Assembly (NCBI GenBank): GCA_021732845.1
Contig: JAKFUF010000131.1
Location: 1-64,000, forward strand
Source: Planctomycetaceae bacterium
GTDB lineage: Bacteria; Planctomycetota; Planctomycetia; Planctomycetales; Planctomycetaceae
Reading direction: 5' to 3'
DNA length: 64,000 bases
The notes beneath the pieces are model-generated. The model saw only the letters and a list, made by a program, of their open reading frames with translations, ran no database searches and was not told the origin of the DNA. Positions within the stretch are counted from its first letter, which is position 1. Each line of letters starts with the position of its first letter. Below are positions 20,972 through 48,496 of this stretch, in pieces. Made by a program: the position numbers and the translations under genes.

Positions 20972-23900
20972 TCATGGCTTTGCCGAGTCTCCATCGGTGT
21001 TCCGGCCCGGCGTCTTCTCTTCCCCCTTCCCTGCCATCTCTGTCGCGACTCCTGGCAGACTCAAAGCTGGGCGGAAGCCGATATGGGCGATTCGCGTTAT
21101 TGGGGGATACGAGCCACGGAATGCGGACTGGCACCTCGCTTCGCTAAAGCTCCAGCTACCGCCACGAGCCACGCGATTCGTGCCCGTTTGGGGGCCCAAC
21201 GGATCGGTGACGGCTGTGCTGCCTTGCGCAGCTCCGTTCCTTTCATTCTGGGGAAGGGTTGCGGAAACCCCTACCTCCTGCCAGTCGTGAGTCCATTCCA
21301 TCAGATTGCCGTGCATGTCGAACAGGCCGCGGAGACTTGGACGCAGTTCCCGCGGCGAGTGAACGTGGTTGTCACTGTTGTTCTCGACCCAGCCAAAGCG
21401 TCCAAACATGCTGACCTCACTGCCAAAGCCGTAGGCCGTCCGCGCGCCAGAGGCAGTGCCTGGAAGATCTGGAGATCCGCCTGCAGGACGTGGCTTACCT
21501 CGACAAGCCCGAGCCGCCACTTCCCACTCGGCCTCCGTCGGCAACCGAAAGCCCCGTTGTTCAATTTTGATTGGCCAATTTCGAGGCGCCCCGTCCGCCC
21601 TGGGGCTTGGATCAGCAGGATACTGTCCTTTGTCCAAGGCTTTCGGGTCCTCATAGGCTTGGTCGGTCTCCAGCAAGCCTGATTGTTGACCAAGCCAACG
21701 ACAGTAACGAACTGCGTTGTACCAACTGGCTGCTAAAACCGCGTCAGTGGGTCCGGCTTCAACTTCTTTCATGGTTTCCGCATGCTCGGGTGCAAATGCG
21801 ATGAACTCCTCGAAGGTGATTTCCCGTTCCAGCACTGCGAAAGCGCGGGTCAATTTGACCGAACGTCGAACCTCACCTTTTTGCCGGCGTGGCTCATCGG
21901 CAACCGGTCCAACCGAATAGTCGCCAGGTTGAAACACGATAAATGTGTAGTAAAACGTCTTCGATGCCGGCGCATTTGATTCGTCACCTTTCGGCCTTTC
22001 AGGAGCGGGGGCATTCGCGTTGGGCATTTCCTCGGATATTGGGAGGGGGCAGGTAATCGCCAAGGTGAACCATTCGCGGTCGGCGGAATAAGGGGCTGGC
22101 GTTTGATCCACCTGCAGGGCCACATCCTTCTGTCCCCATTCCCGCAGCAGCCAGCCTGCGGCCCCATGCACAGCAGAACTGGGATCGTTGCGGTACCAGT
22201 CGGCGAGCTGTTCGAGCAGCTTTTCCCGCCGCGCCTGTGGGATGTCCTCCCGCGGATACTCCCCCAAGGCCAGCAACAGCGCATATCGCGCGTTCTGGGC
22301 GGTGGGATCTTGCGGTCCCGTGCTGACCAATTCCATGTAGTCCAACAGCGATTCCACACTCACGCCGCACGGCCGGCATCGAAAGGCAAACTGCGTGAGC
22401 GCCTCTGGATCGTCGGTCACCTTGAAGATTGGCAGCATTTTTTCGGCGTGCCCCAGCCGCAGCAGTGTCACTGCGGCGTTTGCCCGGCGCTTTCCGTGTG
22501 GCACGCGCTCCACGGACCCAAGTTTTGACGGTGGCTCTGCGGCCGCGATTTCGGCGAGCTCATCGGCCGCTTTTGTGGCAAGCTCTGCGAGATCACGCTC
22601 TCGGGACACAACTGGATACAACGTCTTGAAGGGCGTTGGTTCGGCATCACAGATCAGGCCAACCAACCGGCCTGAATCATCGGCGGCATATTCTGACAGC
22701 AGCGTTGTCGCCCGCATGATCTCTGCTTCCCCGCGCTCCGTCTCATGAAACGCGGCACTCAACGGGTCGAGCAGCACTGCCCGAGCCGGCCGAAGCAGCT
22801 CGAGCGCCGCCGCGTACTGGCTCGGGTTCTCCCCGAGCGTCTTCAGCAGTTCGTTGGTGATGGCCGTCAGCAGTTCGTCCGTGACGGCCTTCAGCAGTTC
22901 GTCGTTGATGTCCTTCAGCAGTTCGTCTGTGACGGCGTCCGTCAGCAGTTCGTCGGTGACGGTCGTCAGCAGTTCGTCGGTGGCGAACGGGACTGCGGAC
23001 TTGCCATCGAAAGTGTATGTGGCCAGCAGGCAGGCGGCGCGGAACCGCCGCTCGGGCAATGCCTGCTCGTCCAGCAGCACCTGGGCCAGTGACGGCGCGA
23101 GTGTATTGGCATGCGGTTTGAGCAGATCGCGCAGGGTCGGCAAGTCGTTCAGGTCAACGGTCAGCAGTGCCTCCTGGATTTCGCCCAAAAGTGCCGGGTT
23201 ATCGGGAAGTAGCGCCAGTGCCGAGTGCAGCCGTGCAGTGGGCTCCAGAGCGGAACTCTTTCGCCGTGCCTCCAGGTATGGCGTGGCCCACTTCTTGAAG
23301 GCGGGCAGCCTCTCCAGCAGTTCAGGAATGGCTGTCGTCTTCGACTGAAGGAGTGTGTCAACCAGCGCATGGGCTTCGGTCGCCTGCTGCTCCTCGTACG
23401 ACTGCCGGCTGAGAAAGAGACCAGCACCCGTGATGACGAAAAGCACAATCGCCAGCATGCCGGCCCGCAGGCCATGCATACGGCCGGCCGCCCGCAGCAT
23501 CTTTTGCTCGGACGGCGTCCAGTTGCTCCTCGCCGTCAACCACTGGATCTGGCACCACTGCCAGAGCGACGGCAGTTGCCGGCTCTCGGGCCGTGCGTTC
23601 CACACCGCCGCGCGGTCGGCCAGCAACAGTTCCGCCCTGCCCCGGCGAGTTTCCTTTTGCTTCCGTGTCAACCACTCCCGCAGTGACGGGACGAGGTAGT
23701 CGTGTGTGAGCTGGTAATGCCGCTGCGTGGCTTCCGGCTGCGGTGCGGTCGTTGACACCGGCTGTCCCGCGTCGGTTTCATCAATCGGCGTGATCAACCG
23801 CAGGTCGGTGTTCAGCAGCGCCAACAGATCGGCGAAGTCGGCGGACCGGCGTTCATATCCGGAGGCGGCCAGGAGGGCCGTCTCCGACTGGCGTTGCCCC

Positions 23901-26074
23901 TTGATCCCCGTTCCATCTTTCGGCAGCAGTGCCTGCAGGACGCCGCGGGCGGTGGCTTCGTGCCGCCGCGAAGCCACGGGTGCGGAACTGGAGCCAAACA
24001 TCTCTTCCAGAAAGGTCACCCCCACGCTGGCAACACCGCCGAGATTCCGCAGCGTGGTTTTGGTCCACTCCTTGGTCTTCACCATTTCGGCAAAGAGAGC
24101 CACGCGGACCGAGATCACCTGGCCGTGTTCATCGGCAAGTTCGTCGATGACCTCGTTCACGAACGCCTGTTGGGCGGCGGTCGGCCCCGCTTGCGACACG
24201 CGGCCAAAGGCGACGCCAAACGCCGTGAGGACTTTTCTCGCGTGCGGAATGTCGAAGAGGTCCACCAGCGCCTGATTGCGGCCGGACTGCAGGCTGAGAT
24301 CCAGGGACTCGAAGAACCGCGTGGCTCCGGTGTAATAGTCGTCGCGAATCAGAATCAGGGCCTGCAGGTGCTGGCCGTCGCACTGCCGCAGCGCCGCGGT
24401 GAGCGGTGCTGTGTCGAGATGGCGATTCGCCGCGAGCCACTGCTCAAACTGGTCCAGCACCAGCAGGGTTTTGAGGCCACCCGGGGAATGACTGGTGGCC
24501 GACCGCTGCTCGGTCCAGTTGTCGACGGATTCGCCAACTTTGCGGGCGAGATCCTCGGGCGTTGTGAAGTAAGCCACGAGGCGGTCGGTCTCCAGTTCGC
24601 TCCTCAAACGCAGAAGCTGGCTGGTGCCCGGGCCGAATTCCCGAAAGCCAGCCGGCCATTCCGCCTGCGGATCCACCAGGAAGATCAATGTCGCCAACCC
24701 GGATTTTCGCGCCTCGCGATACTCAAGTTCGGTGACGGACAGGCTTCCGTCGGCGGGAACGTAACCATACCGGTGCGCGAAGACTCCAATGTAAAGGTCA
24801 CAACTCCGCACATCGGCCAAACAGAATTCGACGGGGCGTTCGTCCGCGGCACCATAATGCTCCATGGCGCAGACATCAAAGCCCCGTGCGCCCAGCGCCC
24901 GCAGAACTGCATTGCGGTGCTCGACGAGATCCAGATAGCTGGAGGAGACATAAACCCGCGGCGGAACCAACGAGTCACTGCCGCGCCGCAACTGTGTCAG
25001 CAGCCAGATCAGCCGGGTCCCGGCCTCCTCAACCTGTGGCTTGGACCCCGAATGCTGGGGAAGATTTGGAATCTCCAGGGCGAGGCGCAGACCGCGCAGC
25101 AGCCGTGCCTCGGTTTCGTCGGAACTCGCCTCCACATAGACGGTGCGGACCCCCGAACCGAGCCGCGGGAGCAGGCCGGCTTTCATAAGCGAGCTTTTGC
25201 CGCAGCCAGAGGGTCCGTAGATCAACCCCACGGAGAATGACTGCGCCGGGTCCGGCGCTTCGATCCGTGACTTCCAGAACCGCAGGCTTTCCGGCAGCCC
25301 GTCCCGGCCGCGGGGACCGGCGAGCAGATCCAGAAAGAAATCGGCATCGCTGGCATCAAACGACCGCAGGCCCTTGGGGACCACGAGCGGCTGCGCTCCG
25401 GAAGTGGCTGCGGTGATTGAGTTGGTGGGCGGATGGCTCGGGACAATCGTCGGTTCGTGCCTCGGCAAACGGCTCTGGTCCGCCAGCAGATGCCGCAGGT
25501 CGTCCACCAGTTCATCGGCCGTGGCATACCGGTCGGAGGCCCGGCGGGCCAGTGCCTTGAGGCAGATTCGCTCGGCTTCCGCCGGCAGCGCGGGTTCGTA
25601 CTGCCGGGGCGACGAGGCCTCCGCGGTGGCAATCTGATCAATCAAGGCTTCCACCGTCGGCCCCTGGAACGGCAGACGGCCGGTCAAAAGCTCAAACAGC
25701 ACCACGCCCAGGCTAAACAGATCCGACCGCGCGTCCACCCGGTGCCCTTCGCCCCGCGCCTGCTCGGGCGACAGGTACGCCGACGTTCCGGTCTGCTTCT
25801 CCCCCCTGCTGCCAAGTTCTTCCCATAGCGCGAGCCCGAAATCCGCCAGGGTCGGTTTGCCACGGGGATCCAACAGGATGTTGGCGGGATTGACGTTCCG
25901 ATGAACCAACCCTTTTGCATGGCCGTGCCCCAGCGCCTCCGCCACGTCCGCCACCAGCGACAGAGATTCGCCGAGGCTCAGCCGCGGCCCCTTCAGCCGC
26001 TCCGCCAGATTCTCCCCGGCGACGTGCCGGGAGACCGTATCGTGCAACCCGTCCGGTGTTTCCCCGTCCGCCAT
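20972..26074 (-). CDS. Pseudokinase-STAND NTPase-DUF4062-FGE giant protein
   Basis: This encodes 1700 residues from ATG 26074. Order: (1) residues 1-205, C-lobe of a Hanks-type kinase without an N-lobe; the HRD motif reads HRNVNP (Asp to Asn60, Lys to Asn62), DFG78-80 remains, so it is probably inactive; (2) P-loop GPSGCGKS at 287-294 of a STAND NTPase; (3) residues about 372-520, a DUF4062 domain (RVYVSSSYLDLVEHRNAV ... CDLYIGVFAHRYGYVP) placed between Walker A and Walker B; (4) Walker B LLVLDQFEQ at 537-545; (5) a transmembrane helix (LAIVLFVITGAGLFL); (6) helical repeats with a DELLTAVT minisatellite; (7) a C-terminal formylglycine-generating-enzyme-like (SUMF1) domain with FRLPTEAEWE, MHGNLMEW and RGGSWSF. 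Divergent from an M48 protease gene. Likely a membrane-anchored signal or conflict sensor. Confidence 0.8.
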   Translation of the reverse strand: MADGETPDGLHDTVSRHVAGENLAERLKGPRLSLGESLSLVADVAEALGHGHAKGLVHRNVNPANILLDPRGKPTLADFGLALWEELGSRGEKQTGTSAYLSPEQARGEGHRVDARSDLFSLGVVLFELLTGRLPFQGPTVEALIDQIATAEASSPRQYEPALPAEAERICLKALARRASDRYATADELVDDLRHLLADQSRLPRHEPTIVPSHPPTNSITAATSGAQPLVVPKGLRSFDASDADFFLDLLAGPRGRDGLPESLRFWKSRIEAPDPAQSFSVGLIYGPSGCGKSSLMKAGLLPRLGSGVRTVYVEASSDETEARLLRGLRLALEIPNLPQHSGSKPQVEEAGTRLIWLLTQLRRGSDSLVPPRVYVSSSYLDLVEHRNAVLRALGARGFDVCAMEHYGAADERPVEFCLADVRSCDLYIGVFAHRYGYVPADGSLSVTELEYREARKSGLATLIFLVDPQAEWPAGFREFGPGTSQLLRLRSELETDRLVAYFTTPEDLARKVGESVDNWTEQRSATSHSPGGLKTLLVLDQFEQWLAANRHLDTAPLTAALRQCDGQHLQALILIRDDYYTGATRFFESLDLSLQSGRNQALVDLFDIPHARKVLTAFGVAFGRVSQAGPTAAQQAFVNEVIDELADEHGQVISVRVALFAEMVKTKEWTKTTLRNLGGVASVGVTFLEEMFGSSSAPVASRRHEATARGVLQALLPKDGTGIKGQRQSETALLAASGYERRSADFADLLALLNTDLRLITPIDETDAGQPVSTTAPQPEATQRHYQLTHDYLVPSLREWLTRKQKETRRGRAELLLADRAAVWNARPESRQLPSLWQWCQIQWLTARSNWTPSEQKMLRAAGRMHGLRAGMLAIVLFVITGAGLFLSRQSYEEQQATEAHALVDTLLQSKTTAIPELLERLPAFKKWATPYLEARRKSSALEPTARLHSALALLPDNPALLGEIQEALLTVDLNDLPTLRDLLKPHANTLAPSLAQVLLDEQALPERRFRAACLLATYTFDGKSAVPFATDELLTTVTDELLTDAVTDELLKDINDELLKAVTDELLTAITNELLKTLGENPSQYAAALELLRPARAVLLDPLSAAFHETERGEAEIMRATTLLSEYAADDSGRLVGLICDAEPTPFKTLYPVVSRERDLAELATKAADELAEIAAAEPPSKLGSVERVPHGKRRANAAVTLLRLGHAEKMLPIFKVTDDPEALTQFAFRCRPCGVSVESLLDYMELVSTGPQDPTAQNARYALLLALGEYPREDIPQARREKLLEQLADWYRNDPSSAVHGAAGWLLREWGQKDVALQVDQTPAPYSADREWFTLAITCPLPISEEMPNANAPAPERPKGDESNAPASKTFYYTFIVFQPGDYSVGPVADEPRRQKGEVRRSVKLTRAFAVLEREITFEEFIAFAPEHAETMKEVEAGPTDAVLAASWYNAVRYCRWLGQQSGLLETDQAYEDPKALDKGQYPADPSPRADGAPRNWPIKIEQRGFRLPTEAEWEVAARACRGKPRPAGGSPDLPGTASGARTAYGFGSEVSMFGRFGWVENNSDNHVHSPRELRPSLRGLFDMHGNLMEWTHDWQEVGVSATLPQNERNGAAQGSTAVTDPLGPQTGTNRVARGGSWSFSEARCQSAFRGSYPPITRIAHIGFRPALSLPGVATEMAGKGEEKTPGRNTDGDSAKP
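22842..22988 (-). repeat. In-frame minisatellite coding DELLTAVT-like octads
   Basis: Six consecutive units, five of 24 bases and one of 27, share the core CAGCAGTTCGTC on the plus strand. On the coding strand they give six octads of the form (T/N)DELL(T/K)xxT. All lengths are multiples of three, so the array can change copy number without breaking the protein. It lies in the helical region between the membrane helix and the FGE-like domain. Confidence 0.85.
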
Positions 26075-26283: not shown

Positions 26284-28368
26284 ATGATCCTGTGGGCTGT
26301 CCAGGAGCCCGTTGATCTCTCCACCTTGTTCCATCAGCCGGCACCCGTCGGCGAACCAGTTGCGTGGTTCATCGTGGCGTGGTTTCTGGTGGTAGTCGGT
26401 TGGTTTGTCTTGCTGCTGGTGAATGTGGCGGTCGGCATCGGACCGACCGCCGATGCCCGTGGCTCACGCTGGCGGTTGGTGTGGGTCTCCGGCTGCCTCG
26501 CGGCGCTGGCCGTCTTGCCCCTCGGCGTCGCGGCCGCGGGAGCGACATGGCGGCCGGAGTCCGTCGAGCCGTTGCTGTCCGCGGGGCTTGTGTGGTTGTT
26601 GATCACCGCCTTCACGACGCACCGGTATTTGAAGGCGGTGCGGTTTCGCCATGACCAGCGACAGGCGTTGCCGCTGGTCACCGACCCCGTGTTCCTCGCC
26701 CGGATTGCGGAGCTGAGCGCGAAAATGAAGCTCGCGCCGCCGCTGACCCGGCTGTGGCCCTCGGGCAGTGGCTCACCCGCCACGATGGCCTTCATGGGGA
26801 CGCTGCAGGCTCCGCAACTCACGGTGACCGACGGCCTGCTCCAGCGGCTGAGCCCCACCGAGCGGGACGCCATCGTCGCCCACGAACTGGGGCATCTCGC
26901 CAACCATTCCCTGTGGCTCTACGCCGCGATGACGCCCCTGCTGGCGGTCACCCACGTCCAGTTGATGAGCGTGACCTCGTCGTGGCTGGGGGTGGCCATC
27001 GCCTGGACGTTCTACATCGGTGTCTTCCGGATTGTCAGCCGGCGGCTCGAATACGACTGCGACCTGCGGGCCGCCCGCGCCATCGGCTTTCGTGAGACCG
27101 TCGCCGCCCTGGCGAAGGTGCATGCGATGCATTCCATCTCCAACACGGGCCGGCTGTCGCTGCTCGTCTATGCCACGGCGAGCCACCCGTCGCGCGACGC
27201 ACGGCTGGCGGTACTCTGCGCCAAAGCTCCGCCCGACGACGGGCCGCAGGTCGAAATCTCAGCCACGACGGTTGCCGCCAGGCATCGCATGAGCCTCGTG
27301 GCTCTGTTGATCTGGCTCGCGAGCCTGGGACTGGGGCTGTTCACCGCCTTGCGGCCTTCCAGCCCCCCGGCTGAGTTGCTGGTCTTCCTGTGGCTCAGCC
27401 TCATCAGCATCGCCCCCTACACGCTGCTGGTCCTCGCACAGTGGTCTCAATTGAGATTGAACGCGCGGCGAATGAAGGGGACAACCGGCCGGCTGCCGAT
27501 GGTCATCCTGGCCATTTCCGTCTGGTTTCCTATCCTGGCATTTTTCACGAGAGATCCCACAACGATTCAGCTCTCCACGATCCTCGCCGTTGTGGGCTGT
27601 CTGGTCAGCCTCCTCTGGAACAACAGCCTGCGACTGTTGCAGACCCAGGTGATCACCGCTTTGAGCACTCTGAATTTTCCCCAGGTCATCACCCTCGCCC
27701 GCAACAACCCCCGGCGGTTCGCCGCCAAGACCGGAGACGCGAAGCTGCGTTACAACCTGGCGCTGGCCCGGGCGGGGATGGGCGATTTCCACCAGGCCTC
27801 CGCCGACCTGGAGGCCCTGTGGCAGGAACGACCGCAGTTCCTGCTCGCCCCGCTCCTGCTCTGCAACTTGTACTTGGATGGCGACCACCATGAACGAGCC
27901 TTGGAATTAGCCACGGCCGCTGGCCAAAAGGCCCCCAGCGATCCTGCCTTCGAGCTGCTGCGCTCCCGCGCGCTGCGGGGGCTCGGGAAGACCGCTGAAG
28001 CCCAAGCCGCCTGCGATCGCGCCGCGGAACTGGTCACCGACGGCAACATCCTGGCCCTCTCGGCCCTGCTCGCCTGCGACCAGGGCGACGAAGTTTCAGC
28101 GCGCAGCCTGATCCAGCGTGCCGAAGAAGCCGCCCCCGGCGAAGGCTTCATGCTCGCCGCCCGCGCCGAACTCGCCCTCCGCCTGGACTCCTTGGAAAGT
28201 GCCCAGGCCGCGGTGGAATCCGTCAAGACCGTGAAGAAAGCCAATCCGTTTCTGTTCCTGAACAGCGAACTCGCCCACCTCGACCGCCTGTTGACAGCCC
28301 GCCTGCCCGCGCCGGAGGTGCCCATGGAAGTGGTGGAGTTTTTGCCAACGACGGATGCGCTGGCCTGA
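26284..28368 (+). CDS. Membrane M48 family metalloprotease with TPR-like C-terminus
   Basis: This encodes 694 residues. Several transmembrane helices flank a zinc protease core: HELGHLAN (the HExxH motif) in IVAHELGHL, and the third ligand in the YDCDLRAARAIG block, as in HtpX/Ste24-type M48 peptidases. The N-terminal region has two helices (WFIVAWFLVVVGWFVLLL and a second near residue 80). The C-terminal third has a further helix pair and then TPR-like repeats (LRYNLALARAGMGDFHQASADLE, ALRGLGKTAEAQAACDRAAEL). Predicted to clip membrane or exported proteins. It is divergent from the pseudokinase-STAND gene with 209 bases between start codons. A broken second copy of its 3' end lies at 32526-32693. 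Confidence 0.85.
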   Translation: MILWAVQEPVDLSTLFHQPAPVGEPVAWFIVAWFLVVVGWFVLLLVNVAVGIGPTADARGSRWRLVWVSGCLAALAVLPLGVAAAGATWRPESVEPLLSAGLVWLLITAFTTHRYLKAVRFRHDQRQALPLVTDPVFLARIAELSAKMKLAPPLTRLWPSGSGSPATMAFMGTLQAPQLTVTDGLLQRLSPTERDAIVAHELGHLANHSLWLYAAMTPLLAVTHVQLMSVTSSWLGVAIAWTFYIGVFRIVSRRLEYDCDLRAARAIGFRETVAALAKVHAMHSISNTGRLSLLVYATASHPSRDARLAVLCAKAPPDDGPQVEISATTVAARHRMSLVALLIWLASLGLGLFTALRPSSPPAELLVFLWLSLISIAPYTLLVLAQWSQLRLNARRMKGTTGRLPMVILAISVWFPILAFFTRDPTTIQLSTILAVVGCLVSLLWNNSLRLLQTQVITALSTLNFPQVITLARNNPRRFAAKTGDAKLRYNLALARAGMGDFHQASADLEALWQERPQFLLAPLLLCNLYLDGDHHERALELATAAGQKAPSDPAFELLRSRALRGLGKTAEAQAACDRAAELVTDGNILALSALLACDQGDEVSARSLIQRAEEAAPGEGFMLAARAELALRLDSLESAQAAVESVKTVKKANPFLFLNSELAHLDRLLTARLPAPEVPMEVVEFLPTTDALA

Positions 28369-29110: not shown

Positions 29111-30199
29111 ATGGCGGATGACCCTGCGCCACTCCTTCCCGAGGGGCAGATTCTCATCTACACGGATGCTGGGCTGAACCTGCAAGTCCGACTGGATGGG
29201 GCAACAGTCTGGCTCACGCAGCGCCTCATCGCCGAGTTGTTCGCTGTCTCGGTGAAGACTGCAAACGAACACCTGATCAATATTTACGACGAAGGCGAAC
29301 TTGCTCCGGAGGCAACTATCCGGAAATTCCGGATAGTTCAAACCGAGGGCACCCGGCAGGTGGCCCGGCTTGTCGACCATTACAGCCTCGACGCCATCGT
29401 CGCCGTCGGAATGCGGGTCCGTTCGGCGAATGGCACGGCTTTTCGGCAATGGGCCATCGCCCGGCTCTCGGAACTGCTGACCAAGGGGTTCACGCTCGAC
29501 GACGAGCGGATCAAGTCCGGCCGCACGCTTGGTGGCGACTACTTCGATGAACTCCTGGCCCGCATCCGTGACATCCGGTCGTCCGAGCGGCTGTTCTATC
29601 AGAAGATCACCGACATTTACGCGACCAGCATCGACTACGACAAGGACTCGGCGGTCACCAAAGAATTCTTCGCCACTGTACAGAACAAACTACACTGGGC
29701 CATTCACGGTCGCACGGCAGCCGAGATCGTCCGGCTCCGCGCCGATGCAGCCCAACCAAACATGGGCCTCACGAGTTGGAAGAATGCGCCGGCGGGACCC
29801 GTCCGAAAGGCCGATGTCACAATCGCGAAGAATTACCTCTCCCAGGAGGAACTCGACGCACTCAACCGCATCGTGTCGATGTACCTCGATTTCGCCGAGG
29901 ATCAGGCGCGGCGCAGAACGACCATGCGGATGGACGAGTGGGTTGGCAAGCTCGACGCCTTTCTGCAGTTCAACGAGCGGAACGTTCTCACCCACGCGGG
30001 CAAAGTGTCACATCAGTTGGCGGAAGAGCATGCCCACGAAGAATTCGCGAAGTTCGACGCGGAACGCCTCCGTCTGACCGCCGCCCAGCCCACGAGCGAT
30101 TTCGACAAGGTGGTGGATGAGATGCAGCGGCTCGAACAGTCCCCGGCCCCCGCGCCAAAGACCAAACGGCCCCGCCCCAGGAAGGACAATGGGGACTGA
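29111..30199 (+). CDS. rhuM: Virulence RhuM family protein
   Basis: This encodes 362 residues. The N-terminus (LIYTDAGLNLQVRLDGATVWLTQRLIAELF) is the RhuM DNA-binding-like start. VDHYSLDAIVAVGMRVRS, FRQWAIARLSELLTKGF and the conserved stretch LGGDYFDELLARIRDIRSSE follow, then RLFYQKITDIYATS and FFATVQNKLHWAIHG. RhuM was named in Salmonella pathogenicity island 3 and is widespread in genomic islands and phage-like regions; its biochemical role is unknown. The C-terminus is a charged tail rich in Pro and Lys. It sits just before the second 97-bp repeat copy, fitting an accessory insertion. No integrase is visible. Confidence 0.88.
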   Translation: MADDPAPLLPEGQILIYTDAGLNLQVRLDGATVWLTQRLIAELFAVSVKTANEHLINIYDEGELAPEATIRKFRIVQTEGTRQVARLVDHYSLDAIVAVGMRVRSANGTAFRQWAIARLSELLTKGFTLDDERIKSGRTLGGDYFDELLARIRDIRSSERLFYQKITDIYATSIDYDKDSAVTKEFFATVQNKLHWAIHGRTAAEIVRLRADAAQPNMGLTSWKNAPAGPVRKADVTIAKNYLSQEELDALNRIVSMYLDFAEDQARRRTTMRMDEWVGKLDAFLQFNERNVLTHAGKVSHQLAEEHAHEEFAKFDAERLRLTAAQPTSDFDKVVDEMQRLEQSPAPAPKTKRPRPRKDNGD

Positions 30200-32326: not shown

Positions 32327-32525
32327 TCTCACTCGCCCAGAACGCCGTGCGGCCACGGGATGCCGGACGACGGAGGCACGCCCAATCAAGTACCGCGATC
32401 TTGTCAACGACTGGAGTTTGCGGGGTGGGATGAGGCGCAGGTAGCGGGCGTGGCATGAGCTTCAAGCTGCCCGCGAATCATGGCCTTTGCCTTGTCACTT
32501 GGCGTGAGAGCCAGTGGCTCGCCGT

Positions 32526-32693
32526 GCGCAGGCAGCGGTGGACGCCGTCAAGGCCGTCAAGAAAGCCAATCCGCTTCTGTTCCTGAACAGCGAACTCGCG
32601 AACCTGGACCGCTTGTTGACGGCCCGGCTGCCCCCGCCGGAAGTGCCCATGGAGGTCGTTGAGTTTTTGCCGACGACGGATGCAATGGCCTGA
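32526..32693 (+). pseudogene. Broken 3' end of a second M48/TPR protease gene
   Basis: The 168 bases align without gaps with 28201-28368, the last 56 codons of the M48 gene, in the same frame up to the same TGA. Protein differences are few (for example FLFLNSELAHLDRL versus LLFLNSELANLDRL, and TTDALA versus TTDAMA) and most base changes are silent, so the copy was a working paralogue for some time. Upstream of 32526 the similarity stops and an in-frame TGA occurs (near 32508). No start or ribosome site is present. It is a remnant, not a gene. Confidence 0.85.
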
Positions 32694-45131: not shown

Positions 45132-48100
45132 TCACTTTCCCACCCAGATCCGCACATCGCCTTCCAACCCTCCCGAGGCGATTGTGCCCCCATCCGGGGA
45201 GACGGCGAGGCAAAAGACCCGGCGGCTGTGTCCCGGAAGGTGCGTAATCAACTCGCCGCTGGCGATTTCCCACAGTTTCAAGTGCCGGTCGCGGCCACCC
45301 GAAACGAGGGCTGACTGTCCGGGCAGACGCGCCAAACAGTGGACTTGTCCCGTGTGCCCCTTGATGACGGTCCGCGTTTTGTTTGAAGACACGTCCCACA
45401 AATGAATTTCGCCGATGCTCGTGCCGATCGCCAGCAGGCGACCCTCGTCACAGTATTGCAGAGCCATTGGCTCAGACTTCAGGGGGATTGTGTCCTGCAC
45501 CACGCCACTGTTCGCGTCATAAATCTCGACGATCCTGCCTTCCCGCGCCATGGCCAGACGCTCGTCATCCAGCGAGAATGTCAGCGCTGCCACCGCGCTG
45601 GCGGGCGTCACTTGGGTCCGTGGCTTGTCCCACTGGGTGGTGTCATAAATCAATACCGGCCCATCGCGGGTAACAATGGCCAGGCGCTTTCCTAGAGGGG
45701 AGAAGCGCACATTCGCCGTCCCGGTTGCCGGAACAGCGAGTTCTTGAACCACGGTTCGCGACTTGACGTCCCACAGCACGACCACCGACTCGCGTCCCGC
45801 GCTGGCCAGCAGGCTGCCCCCGGGTTGAAGGGAGAAAACACGACAATCGTGAACCGGAGCTGTGGCGAAGGGTGTTGAAGTGCATGTCTGCAAGTTCCAA
45901 GCCTGAAGGGTGCCGGCTTCATCAACGGCAACCACTTCGTTGCCACCCGGCAGAAACGCCACATCGCGCACTGCTTTTTCATGCCACAGGATGTTTGGCG
46001 TCGTCAAACTCTCAAGTTGGACGCGGATGACCGATCCATCGCCGCTGCCAATGACCAGCGACTTCCCATTCGCCGCCAGCGCCAGCGAGCCCAACGTCAG
46101 CCCATGCGTGAAGGTCGAGCGGATTTCCTCTTTGCGGTTGGTGTCGAACAGGTGCAACTGGCCGTCACTGGAGACAACCATCAACAGCGGCATGCCGGGA
46201 ACGAATTCCATGTCATCGATCCGTCCCCACACAGACGCGTGCCGATGTGGCTCACCTTTTCCCGGCGTGTGCAGCATCAACTGTCCGTGATAGTCTCCGG
46301 TGGCCAGAAGCTCGCCGTGTTCTGACAGTGCCACCGCCTCCAGTTCGGGCGTCGAATCCAGCTCGGCCTCGGGGCTGTTCCCCAGTTTGTAACCCTCAAT
46401 GTTCCACACCCGCAAATGGCCCTCTTTGGAAGCCACGGTGATTTTCTTTCCGTCCGCCGAAAACCGGACATCGCGGGTGGGAGTCCTTTTTCCGGTCGGA
46501 ATTTCGGCGGTCACCGCCCCACTCTCCGCATCCCAGATCCGGACCGCACCGGTTGCGGCGGTTGCCAGCAGGCGTTTTCCATTGGGGGAGTAGCGGATGA
46601 GAATGACCTTTGGGCCGTGCTGCATCTGCCGCAAGACGCGGTCATTCTCCAACGGGGTCCAGACCCGGACAAAACCGTCGGACGATCCCGAAGCCAGGTG
46701 CATGGATATGGGCGAGAACTCGATCGACCGGAATGTCACGTCATTGTCAACCTTGAGCGTGCGGATCAGTTCGCCTGTTCGTACATCCCAGACCCGAATC
46801 TGCTTGTCCTCCCCGATGGAGGCACAGACGTTTCCATCGCGTGAAAGCGCCACATCGGTGACCATGTCGCCATGATTGGCAACCGGTTCCAACGGCGCGA
46901 TCAGGCGGTCGTAGTAATTCCATTCGAATCCTCGCAGGCTGGCCATGCCCGGATCGGCCTCGGTCCGTTGAAGCATGTCGTGGACACCGCTGATGTCCCC
47001 GTGGCTCAGATGCACCGCAGCCAGGTTCATTTGCGACCGGTACAACGACTGCCGCGCGGCATCGGCACTGCGGACGGATTCCCGCCAGGCCATGGTCACG
47101 GCCAGCAGCCCGAAGGTCAGGCTGAGAAACAAACTGGCGACCAGTCCCGACAGCACCGGCCGCCGCCGGCACCACCGCCAGGAGCGCTCCACCCGCGAGA
47201 TCGGCCGGGCACGGATCGGCTCTCCGGCGGCGAACCGCCCCAGCTCTTCGGCGAATTCCTCGGAGGTCGCGTAGCGCTTGCCCGGCTCGCGTTCCAGACA
47301 TTTCAGGCAGATGGTTTCCAGATCCTTGGGCAGCGATGGATACAAGATCCGCGGGGAGGGCGGATCCTGGTTCACCTTCTGATCCAGAATGGCACGGGCA
47401 TTCCCTCGAAATGGAACGTCGCCGGTCAACATTTCAAACATGATGACGCCGAGGGCATACAGGTCGGACCGCGCGTCCGTCTCGCGCGTTCTGCCGCTCG
47501 CCTGTTCCGGCGACATGTATTTGGCGGTGCCGACCACTTGTCCCTCACCCGACAACGTGGCGTCGGCATCCAGGTGCTTGGCAAGTCCAAAATCGGCCAC
47601 ATAGGGCTGCCCCTGCCGGTTCAGCAGGATATTGGCGGGCTTCACATCCCGGTGAACAATTCCTTGCTGGTGAGCGTAGTGCAGGGCGCGGGCAATTTGG
47701 GTCAAAAGTTCGACAGTCCGGGCAACCGGTGGCTTACCCTGCGTCAAAAAATCCCGCAGCGTCAAGCCGTCAATGTATTCGCTGGCGATAAAAACCTGGT
47801 CGCCCTCCGTCCCCACTTCGTGGACGGACACAATGTGCGGATGCCGCAAACTCGCCGCCGTCTTGGCTTCGAACAGCAGGCTCATGGTCTCCTGGTCGGG
47901 CGACCGCGGCAGTTTCAAGGCAACCTGCCGGCTCAGATTGATGTCCTCCGCGAGCCACACCTCGCCCGCACTCCCCTGCCCCAGCGTGCGAATCAGCGTG
48001 AAGTGACCGACCTGCTTTTGGCGGAGGTCCGGCGTTTTGGAATAAATCGCCGTCGGTTCGAGATCCTTCTGCGTGGAGACCGTGCCACAGTCCGGACAAG

Positions 48101-48206
48101 TGACCGTGATCAACCGCTGCTCGGCCAGAGTCTCCGCCTCGTCATCAATGGAGTTGCAAATCTCCAGCAGCCGGTTGCATTTGGGGCAGTGAACGGTCAT
48201 CGACAT
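45132..48206 (-). CDS. Ser/Thr protein kinase fused to a WD40 propeller
   Basis: This encodes 1024 residues from ATG 48206. An N-terminal zinc ribbon (Cys7, Cys10, Cys37, Cys40) precedes a full Hanks kinase: glycine loop LGQGSAGEVWLAED, Lys98 in QVALKLPR, HRDVKPANIL (Asp187), DFG (205-207) and GTAKYMSPEQA. A transmembrane helix follows (LSGLVASLFLSLTFGLLAVTMAW), then about 14 WD40 blades over the last ~560 residues, ending GDVRIWVGK. This zinc-ribbon-kinase-TM-WD40 layout is the main planctomycete membrane kinase type. All catalytic residues are intact, unlike the pseudokinase at 26 kb. Confidence 0.9.
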   Translation of the reverse strand: MSMTVHCPKCNRLLEICNSIDDEAETLAEQRLITVTCPDCGTVSTQKDLEPTAIYSKTPDLRQKQVGHFTLIRTLGQGSAGEVWLAEDINLSRQVALKLPRSPDQETMSLLFEAKTAASLRHPHIVSVHEVGTEGDQVFIASEYIDGLTLRDFLTQGKPPVARTVELLTQIARALHYAHQQGIVHRDVKPANILLNRQGQPYVADFGLAKHLDADATLSGEGQVVGTAKYMSPEQASGRTRETDARSDLYALGVIMFEMLTGDVPFRGNARAILDQKVNQDPPSPRILYPSLPKDLETICLKCLEREPGKRYATSEEFAEELGRFAAGEPIRARPISRVERSWRWCRRRPVLSGLVASLFLSLTFGLLAVTMAWRESVRSADAARQSLYRSQMNLAAVHLSHGDISGVHDMLQRTEADPGMASLRGFEWNYYDRLIAPLEPVANHGDMVTDVALSRDGNVCASIGEDKQIRVWDVRTGELIRTLKVDNDVTFRSIEFSPISMHLASGSSDGFVRVWTPLENDRVLRQMQHGPKVILIRYSPNGKRLLATAATGAVRIWDAESGAVTAEIPTGKRTPTRDVRFSADGKKITVASKEGHLRVWNIEGYKLGNSPEAELDSTPELEAVALSEHGELLATGDYHGQLMLHTPGKGEPHRHASVWGRIDDMEFVPGMPLLMVVSSDGQLHLFDTNRKEEIRSTFTHGLTLGSLALAANGKSLVIGSGDGSVIRVQLESLTTPNILWHEKAVRDVAFLPGGNEVVAVDEAGTLQAWNLQTCTSTPFATAPVHDCRVFSLQPGGSLLASAGRESVVVLWDVKSRTVVQELAVPATGTANVRFSPLGKRLAIVTRDGPVLIYDTTQWDKPRTQVTPASAVAALTFSLDDERLAMAREGRIVEIYDANSGVVQDTIPLKSEPMALQYCDEGRLLAIGTSIGEIHLWDVSSNKTRTVIKGHTGQVHCLARLPGQSALVSGGRDRHLKLWEIASGELITHLPGHSRRVFCLAVSPDGGTIASGGLEGDVRIWVGK

Positions 48207-48496
48207 GGTGCAAGAGACCCTGGAGGGAAAAGCGGACAAAGGTGACGGCAGAACGGCCTGACGGATCTCAGAGACGCCGACAGTGTACCAAGCGTTGCCG
48301 TTCCATTAAGTCGTCGGATGGAGCCTGTTTCCCAAGGGATGCAGGACACGCCCTGCCGCCAGGCGACGGGGTCGCGGAGCAGCGTCCGCGTCCGATGGAT
48401 TGCGACACGGGTTTTGAACGATCATGCTCGGAGATGGAAAGCACATTTGTGTGCCGCTCGACCATGACAGTAACCATATTTTTTTGGCGGGGCTGC

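What the first reader, a model, noticed from the sequence alone, without database searches (positions are those of the whole stretch)
20972..26074. Pseudokinase-STAND protein with DUF4062 placed inside the NTPase and an FGE-like C-terminus
The kinase part lacks its N-lobe, and the catalytic loop reads HRNVNP instead of HRDVKP. DUF4062 (372-520) sits between Walker A (287-294) and Walker B (537-545). The C-terminus is SUMF1/FGE-like. STAND NTPases with DUF4062 act in sensing and conflict; an inactive kinase lobe as recruiting module plus an FGE-like ligand-binding end would be an unusual sensor design.
Basis: partly seen in the sequence, partly recalled or inferred. Interest (0 to 1): 0.6.

Follow-up and report, generated by a model that had tools for sequence, protein, structure and literature searches.

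The report
Immune-like receptor with nested NADase, dead kinase
In one planctomycete bacterium, a family of large immune-like receptor proteins carries a probable NAD-destroying domain lodged inside its own molecular switch, and the copy in this window has in addition lost its protein kinase, so it may show one signalling output taking over from another.

Summary
The 1,700-aa protein (20972-26074, minus strand) has a kinase C-lobe without N-lobe and HRN for HRD, an nSTAND1 NTPase with DUF4062 inserted at residues 367-528 between intact Walker A and B, and an FGE-like end. Comparison changes the reading. Three sister genes in the same genome carry the same insertion but complete, canonical kinases, so the "pseudokinase" is decay in one copy. 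The insertion is absent from 40 of 40 aligned homologues; two other paralogues carry a TIR domain between kinase and NTPase. DUF4062 was recently shown to be a TIR-like NADase (PMC13174449); its catalytic Glu is kept (E451), and the modelled domain matches a plant TIR structure. The C-terminus folds like a retroelement-diversified lectin, lacks one of two FGE cysteines, and follows a helical solenoid and a probable transmembrane helix. The four inserted paralogues form one clade by NTPase but not by sensor (p-AU 1.4e-74), suggesting swapped sensors. Best explanation: an NLR-like receptor whose NTPase switch drives a nested NADase; in this copy the kinase output is lost. No activity was tested. 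New variant of a known kind.

The parts
20972..26074 (-). P0001, 1,700-aa STAND receptor: kinase C-lobe remnant, nSTAND1 with nested DUF4062, transmembrane-like helix, alpha-solenoid, FGE-like (C-type lectin fold) end
25475..26023 (-). kinase C-lobe remnant, residues 18-200
   Evidence: Pfam Pkinase from model position 80 only; phmmer to PknB C-lobe
25886..25903 (-). HRNVNP in place of HRDxKP, residues 58-63
   Evidence: D in 102 of 102 other rows with letters
26059..26074 (-). start ATG and the point where DNA homology to the full-kinase paralogues ends (26059)
24977..25387 (-). nSTAND1 N-terminal part with Walker A, residues 230-366
25190..25216 (-). Walker A GPSGCGKSS, residues 287-295
24491..24976 (-). 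inserted TIR-like DUF4062 domain, residues 367-528
   Evidence: absent from 40 of 40 homologues; PDB KpSwz E 1e-8; model matches TIR 4c6t_C, Z 13.2, 133 aligned, rmsd 3.2
24722..24724 (-). E451, predicted catalytic Glu
   Evidence: aligns with an Ala of the KpSwz chain that I take to be the E97A change described in the paper; Glu in 9 of 9 aligned DUF4062
24437..24466 (-). Walker B LLVLDQFEQW, residues 537-546
23483..24490 (-). nSTAND1 C-terminal part, residues 529-864
23408..23464 (-). probable transmembrane helix, residues 871-889
   Evidence: Kyte-Doolittle 2.25; similar segment in 69 of 99 family rows
22106..23188 (-). helical solenoid, about residues 963-1323
   Evidence: AlphaFold2 model of residues 960-1700, mean pLDDT 86.5, pTM 0.86
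21068..21943 (-). FGE-like / C-type lectin fold domain, residues 1378-1669
26284..28368 (+). divergent neighbour, M48 peptidase with TPR (context, not judged part of the system)

Best explanation
It is a probably membrane-anchored, NLR-like receptor of a planctomycete family (kinase - nSTAND1 - helix - solenoid - lectin-fold FGE). In an ancestor of four genes of this genome a TIR-like NADase (DUF4062) was inserted into the NTPase just before the Walker B strand. Proposed working: the solenoid/lectin end binds a ligand; the NTPase changes nucleotide state and oligomerises; the nested NADase domains are brought together, hydrolyse NAD+ and stop the cell (abortive response). In this copy the kinase was disabled by loss of its N-lobe and its catalytic Asp, leaving the NADase as the only enzymatic output; its sensor is of a different lineage from those of its sisters. 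Shown by sequence: domain order, exact insertion, kinase loss, retained Walker motifs and catalytic Glu, sensor/NTPase incongruence. Inferred: NADase activity, membrane topology, ligand binding, oligomerisation, defence role.
For: Insertion at 367-528 absent from 40 of 40 homologues and present in four genes that form one NTPase clade, SH-aLRT 99.6. DUF4062 resembles the solved Swarozyc NADase KpSwz (E 1e-8) with its mutated catalytic position opposite E451; the modelled insert matches TIR 4c6t. Walker A, Walker B and most of the QLTHDYLVPSL motif are intact and invariant or nearly so in the family alignment. The NTPase model aligns with plant NLR resistosomes, e.g. 6j5t_C Z 15.7, 246 aligned, rmsd 3.2. 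A TIR domain sits at another site, between kinase and NTPase, in two other paralogues. C-terminus closest to DGR variable protein 2y3c by sequence (E 5.8e-17 against 4.4e-9 for the best FGE) and by fold (Z 31.5 against 23.8). Sensor monophyly of the four genes rejected, p-AU 1.44e-74. DUF4062 in P0001 versus C115: pN 0.21 while synonymous sites are saturated, so constrained.
Against: No biochemical or expression evidence. Of four human DUF4062-NACHT proteins assayed in PMC13174449 only TEP1 hydrolysed NAD+, so a kept Glu does not prove activity. The DUF4062 part of the model rests on one sequence (block means of pLDDT 41-76). No defence island was shown: of ten window ORFs scanned with Pfam the near neighbours are metabolic or surface-type genes, two without match, an M48 peptidase and a RhuM gene at 29111-30199; of neighbours only the M48 protein was put to PADLOC, without a match, and the 25 of 33 PADLOC matches shown for P0001 all begin in its kinase part. 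The transmembrane-like segment does not reach the cut-off in 30 of 99 family rows.
Confidence: 0.6

Rival explanations
1. Pseudokinase scaffold: the remnant C-lobe has been kept to dock partners or substrates, and is a functional part of the receptor.
For: The C-lobe is still 83% identical to C197's and C115's and open over its whole length; the P0001 path has dN/dS about 0.26, below neutral. Kaur et al. 2020 (PMC7159879, passages read) report that most kinase domains in their vWA-MoxR conflict systems have disrupted catalytic residues.
Against: Unique to one copy: HRD is D in all 102 other rows with letters and 74 of 80 complete family ORFs have both lobes. dN/dS rises about fourfold against the sister pair (0.26 versus 0.06), as expected if constraint fell after kinase loss, though the first NTPase half rises too. 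A C-lobe without N-lobe is not a known stable pseudokinase (own knowledge).
Confidence: 0.2
2. Dying gene: P0001 is an early pseudogene of the family with no function; kinase loss is the first lesion.
For: The family shows birth and death: C39 has a complete kinase and the start of the NTPase, then a broken frame (1 TGA); C184 and C126 hold fragments. The first NTPase half of P0001 has dN/dS 0.46 against 0.02 for the sister pair.
Against: 1,700 codons are open; Walker A, Walker B and the DUF4062 invariants are intact; the second NTPase half has dN/dS about 0.24, like its sisters' 0.21.
Confidence: 0.12
3. DUF4062 here is a non-enzymatic adaptor that binds an NAD+-like ligand or mediates homotypic assembly, as may hold for human NWD1, NWD2 and NPHP3.
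For: Only TEP1 of four tested human DUF4062-NACHT proteins was active (PMC13174449, passages).
Against: The catalytic Glu and the other invariant positions are kept in all four genes; TIR-type domains were acquired at two different sites of this receptor in one genome, which fits an enzymatic output.
Confidence: 0.25
4. The 5' truncation is an assembly artefact and the true gene has a full kinase.
For: The genome is a 262-contig assembly and paralogues share near-identical N-lobes; reads were not available.
Against: The remnant also carries Asn for the HRD Asp, Asn for the following Lys and other changes at conserved columns, and up to the junction the DNA is at most about 80% identical to the paralogues, not the kind of exact repeat that misleads assemblers.
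Confidence: 0.07

Closest known systems
Swarozyc (KpSwz) and TEP1 DUF4062 TIR-like NADases (PMC13174449; PDB 10wc, 11cq, 11cv, 11gz)
   Same: same domain, E 1e-8 to KpSwz, catalytic position aligned; TEP1 also joins DUF4062 with a STAND-type NTPase
   Different: in TEP1/NWD1/NWD2/NPHP3 DUF4062 lies adjacent to NACHT (paper), and in the eight bacterial DUF4062-NTPase proteins inspected here (L099, L100, L103, L104, L107, L213, L214, L215) it lies before the matched NTPase or Walker A; here it is inside the NTPase, and the sensor differs
nSTAND1 - FGE/CLec conflict receptors, some DGR-diversified (PMC8195603, PMC10907252)
   Same: nSTAND1 NTPase with a C-terminal FGE-type C-type-lectin domain proposed as antigen sensor; some with TIR effectors
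   Different: no template repeat for the P0001 end found in this genome; a nested DUF4062 is not described in the passages read
Planctomycete kinase - nSTAND1 - solenoid - FGE family (79 loci)
   Same: same order and length; P0001 is a member by descent
   Different: P0001 has the 162-aa insert and a dead half-kinase
KAP NTPases (recalled; a 2004 paper with this in its title is listed in the references of PMC8195603)
   Same: P-loop NTPase with a foreign segment inserted inside it
   Different: insert is transmembrane helices, not a TIR-like enzyme
Plant NLR resistosomes (ZAR1 6j5t, Sr35 7xc2, NRC4 9cc9)
   Same: STAND NTPase core aligns, Z 14.8-15.7 for these three
   Different: effector is N-terminal and the sensor is a leucine-rich repeat (own knowledge)

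Membership tests
DUF4062 / TIR-like NADase | significant match to the family and to a solved member | tested here: met
   Pfam PF13271 75.6 bits, cut-off 24.7; KpSwz E 1e-8
DUF4062 / TIR-like NADase | catalytic Glu (KpSwz E97, TEP1 E1008) | tested here: met
   E451 lies opposite an Ala of the KpSwz chain, read as E97A since the paper's construct carries that change; Glu in 9 of 9 aligned DUF4062. The TEP1 alignment shown does not reach its E1008
DUF4062 / TIR-like NADase | TIR-like fold | tested here: met
   model residues 167-321 (P0001 371-525) to 4c6t_C, Z 13.2, 133 aligned, rmsd 3.2; single-sequence region, moderate pLDDT
DUF4062 / TIR-like NADase | NAD+ hydrolysis | not testable with these tools
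   needs an assay
nSTAND1 STAND NTPase | profile match with Walker A and Walker B | tested here: met
   PF20703 65.7 bits, cut-off 27.1; GPSGCGKSS and LLVLDQFEQW
nSTAND1 STAND NTPase | uninterrupted NTPase core between Walker A and B (usual, not strictly defining) | tested here: not met
   162-aa insert, absent from 40 of 40 homologues; homology outside it is intact
active Ser/Thr protein kinase | N-lobe with Gly loop and VAIK Lys | tested here: not met
   absent
active Ser/Thr protein kinase | HRD catalytic Asp | tested here: not met
   N at residue 60
active Ser/Thr protein kinase | DFG Asp | tested here: met
   DFGLA at 78
catalytic formylglycine-generating enzyme | FGE (PF03781) fold | tested here: met
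   PF03781 104.5 bits; FGE 5nyy Z 23.8
catalytic formylglycine-generating enzyme | two active-site cysteines, C-x4-C | tested here: not met
   opposite CHESYC of T. curvata FGE, P0001 reads FSEARC: first Cys is Phe. In the 52-row family alignment C is not among the six commonest letters at the first position and is 8 of 52 at the second. Which Cys are catalytic is recalled; one search lists human C336S and C341S mutants
DGR variable protein | C-type lectin fold like the Treponema variable protein | tested here: met
   2y3c Z 31.5, 263 aligned, rmsd 2.7
DGR variable protein | template repeat elsewhere in the genome | tested here: not met
   the last 429 bases match only themselves in G000, a draft genome; five RT genes exist but were not typed
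antiphage defence system | protects against phage | not testable with these tools
   of P0001's 33 PADLOC matches the 25 shown all begin in its kinase part

The most novel reading that the evidence does not exclude
One genome preserves a graded series in which a receptor's output changes from kinase alone (C55, C126), to kinase plus NADase (TIR between domains in C21, C174; DUF4062 inside the NTPase in C197, C115, C26), to NADase alone (P0001). Because the NADase is lodged in the loop before the Walker B strand, the nucleotide switch itself would gate the enzyme directly, unlike NLRs in which the effector hangs on the N-terminus; and the same switch-plus-enzyme unit has been joined to different sensors.
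Probability: 0.35. Interest if true: 0.75.

Novelty: new variant of a known kind. Interest (0 to 1): 0.55.

Why it matters
If right, a NAD-destroying immune enzyme can be built inside an NLR-type switch rather than at its end, which gives a compact system to test how nucleotide state controls TIR-type NADases. The paralogue set also offers a natural experiment on what the kinase contributes in kinase-STAND receptors, and suggests sensor exchange behind a constant switch in bacteria.

Tried and rejected
Frameshifted or displaced N-lobe: rejected. M48 partner: rejected as recurrent. DGR-diversified sensor: no template repeat found. DUF4062 inserted in STAND proteins elsewhere: of 392 phylum genomes (at most seven candidates scored in each) 47 had a match to the DUF4062-plus-Walker-B query, G000 included; besides G000's four genes, two rows also ran through the query's Walker B stretch (G755, G689), and these two plus G676 and G585 were inspected: in G755, G689 and G676 the DUF4062-like part lies before Walker A, in G585 no Walker A was seen. 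In 397 class genomes only G000's rows span the insert among the rows listed, but only two candidates per genome were scored and the list was cut. Viral contigs: one scan with a four-row alignment gave no relative; a nine-row alignment had no stretch fit to search with. Whole-model Foldseek gave weak, mostly ORC/AAA+ matches; the second look at those is used instead; among the 50 rows shown in each, 10wc and 11gz do not appear, which excludes nothing. Literature: DUF4062 alone found nine papers; searches joining STAND, kinase, TIR, FGE or nSTAND1 showed no paper whose listing or passages describe DUF4062 nested in a STAND NTPase; 'Swarozyc' found none. Papers: PMC13174449 abstract, Results part 1 and passages; PMC7159879, PMC8195603, PMC10907252 passages only; all others search listings only.

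Rows and picks: one search counted 107 rows with duplicates, 98 distinct; four rows have no letters at HRD. The two trees used 29 rows picked by hand after seeing the BLAST ranks; the four-gene group was defined by the insertion before the trees. The dN/dS values are simple pairwise estimates combined by a three-point formula.

Full report
What is there. The reading frame 20972-26074 on the minus strand gives 1,700 aa without an internal stop. Pfam finds a kinase match only from model position 80 of 263, DUF4062, nSTAND1 and FGE-sulfatase. Walker A (287) and Walker B (537) flank DUF4062, and the catalytic loop reads HRNVNP. The window is the first 64 kb of contig 11 of a 9.25-Mb genome in 262 contigs. 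A genome of the same family code, G033, holds a 31,819-base contig that by number and length matches a Schlesneria MAG record, so a planctomycete of Planctomycetaceae kind is likely (inference).

Sisters. Searching the genome with P0001 gives three long relatives at 55-68% over about the first 1,025 residues, C197, C115 and C26, and shorter or weaker ones. All three carry DUF4062 at the same place and a complete kinase; C55 and C126 have no insert; C21 and C174 have an extra linker of about 173 residues that is a TIR domain (TIR_2, E 1.1e-19 in C21; 97% identical in C174) between kinase and NTPase. The fifth DUF4062 gene of the genome, on C182, is a DUF4062-VMAP-C protein and not of this family.

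Family. The best 79 loci from the genome collection are titled with names of Planctomycetota (Kuenenia counted in by own knowledge), except one titled only 'bacterium'. They and genomes of relatives show the order kinase, nSTAND1, helical region, FGE. Of 80 distinct family ORFs not cut by the ends of the fetched stretch, 74 have both kinase lobes, 2 short ones (350 and 427 aa) a C-lobe match only, 4 no kinase match, and 69 the FGE part; P0001 itself is not in this count. Over 100 distinct ORFs the distance between the two NTPase halves is 4-46 residues in all but C197, C115 and C26, where it is 183-184. On a 41-row alignment the insert is residues 367-528 of P0001. Some loci fetched by different tools are the same contigs; one search removed those with identical NTPase parts.

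Kinase. HRD is D in 102 of 102 other rows that have letters, 93 of 93 when identical rows count once; the VAIK Lys is K in 99 of 100 rows with letters. P0001 has N, and also N for the Lys two places on. At 51 well conserved C-lobe columns P0001 departs at 5; only 2 of 106 other rows depart at as many or more. DNA homology ends at 26059 and the neighbouring M48 gene, read from its ATG, starts at 26284, so little room is left for a hidden lobe. By a three-point estimate the P0001 path has dN/dS 0.26 in the C-lobe against 0.06 between C197 and C115, and 0.24 against 0.21 in the second NTPase half; but the first NTPase half also rises (0.46 against 0.02), so the kinase is not alone in having relaxed. 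This fits either a recent complete loss of constraint or a weaker lasting one.

The insert. By sequence its only two PDB matches (E up to 10) are KpSwz (E 1e-8) and TEP1 (E 2.4e-4). PMC13174449 reports that these hydrolyse NAD+, that E97 of KpSwz is needed for phage defence and NAD+ loss, and that its cryo-EM construct is E97A. In the PDB chain the residue opposite P0001 E451 is Ala, which I take as that mutation. The residue is Glu in 9 of 9 aligned DUF4062 domains. The AlphaFold2 model (mean pLDDT 79.6, pTM 0.61) has alternating strands and helices in the insert, matching TIR 4c6t_C, and the NTPase aligns with ORC/Cdc6 proteins and plant NLRs. In established P-loop geometry the start of the Walker B strand points away from the nucleotide, so the core could tolerate the insert (own knowledge).

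The sensor end. After the NTPase comes a hydrophobic stretch 871-889 (19-residue mean 2.25), present above 1.6 in 69 of 99 family rows and with the more positive flank on the NTPase side in 63 of those 69 (duplicates included); the end would then be outside the cytoplasm (inference). The rest models well as a helical solenoid and a C-type lectin fold (pLDDT 86.5, pTM 0.86), closest to Treponema variable protein 1 (Z 31.5, 263 aligned, rmsd 2.7). One of two FGE cysteines is missing.

Mosaic. C197 and C115 are 97-99% identical in kinase C-lobe, first NTPase half and DUF4062, 88% in the second NTPase half, but 35% and 45% in solenoid and FGE. For P0001, the second NTPase half is closest to C197, C115 and C26 (ranks 1-3 of 109 rows), while its sensor is closest to four loci from three MAGs of other planctomycetes (44-46%) and the three sisters rank 7, 32 and 54 of 93. 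In trees of 29 rows the four are one clade by NTPase (99.6) and that clade is rejected for the sensor. Sensor exchange is the simplest reading; very unequal rates are a weaker alternative.

Verdict. A real, non-chance architecture: a lineage-specific insertion of a now-characterised NADase domain into the switch of a known receptor type, with kinase decay in one copy. Interest 0.55.

Noticed in passing
window 32520-32690: A 57-residue piece 84% identical to the C-terminal end (638-694) of the M48-TPR protein at 26284-28368 lies about 4 kb downstream; a partial duplication.
   Followed up: no
L029 / G000:C39:40810-41736: A copy with complete kinase and the NTPase start, 78% identical to P0001 over residues 4-312, whose frame is then broken (1 TGA).
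   Followed up: partly
L032 and L034 (G000:C21, C174): TIR domain between kinase and nSTAND1; its sequence found no other intact family member among the fetched ORFs.
   Followed up: partly
L045 4706-6478 (G000:C182): DUF4062 fused to VMAP-C, a domain of ternary conflict systems.
   Followed up: no
window 22841-22982: 24-bp tandem repeat, about 5.7 copies, coding TDELL-type repeats at about residues 1032-1079.
   Followed up: no
window 29111-30199: RhuM-family gene (E 7.8e-113), close to the locus.
   Followed up: no
window 45132-48239: Complete kinase fused to WD40 propellers, 1,035 aa.
   Followed up: no
L100 682-3774 and L103 1-3090: In relatives, DUF4062 - NACHT - FGE proteins of about 1,030 aa: comparable parts in another order, with DUF4062 first.
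   Followed up: partly
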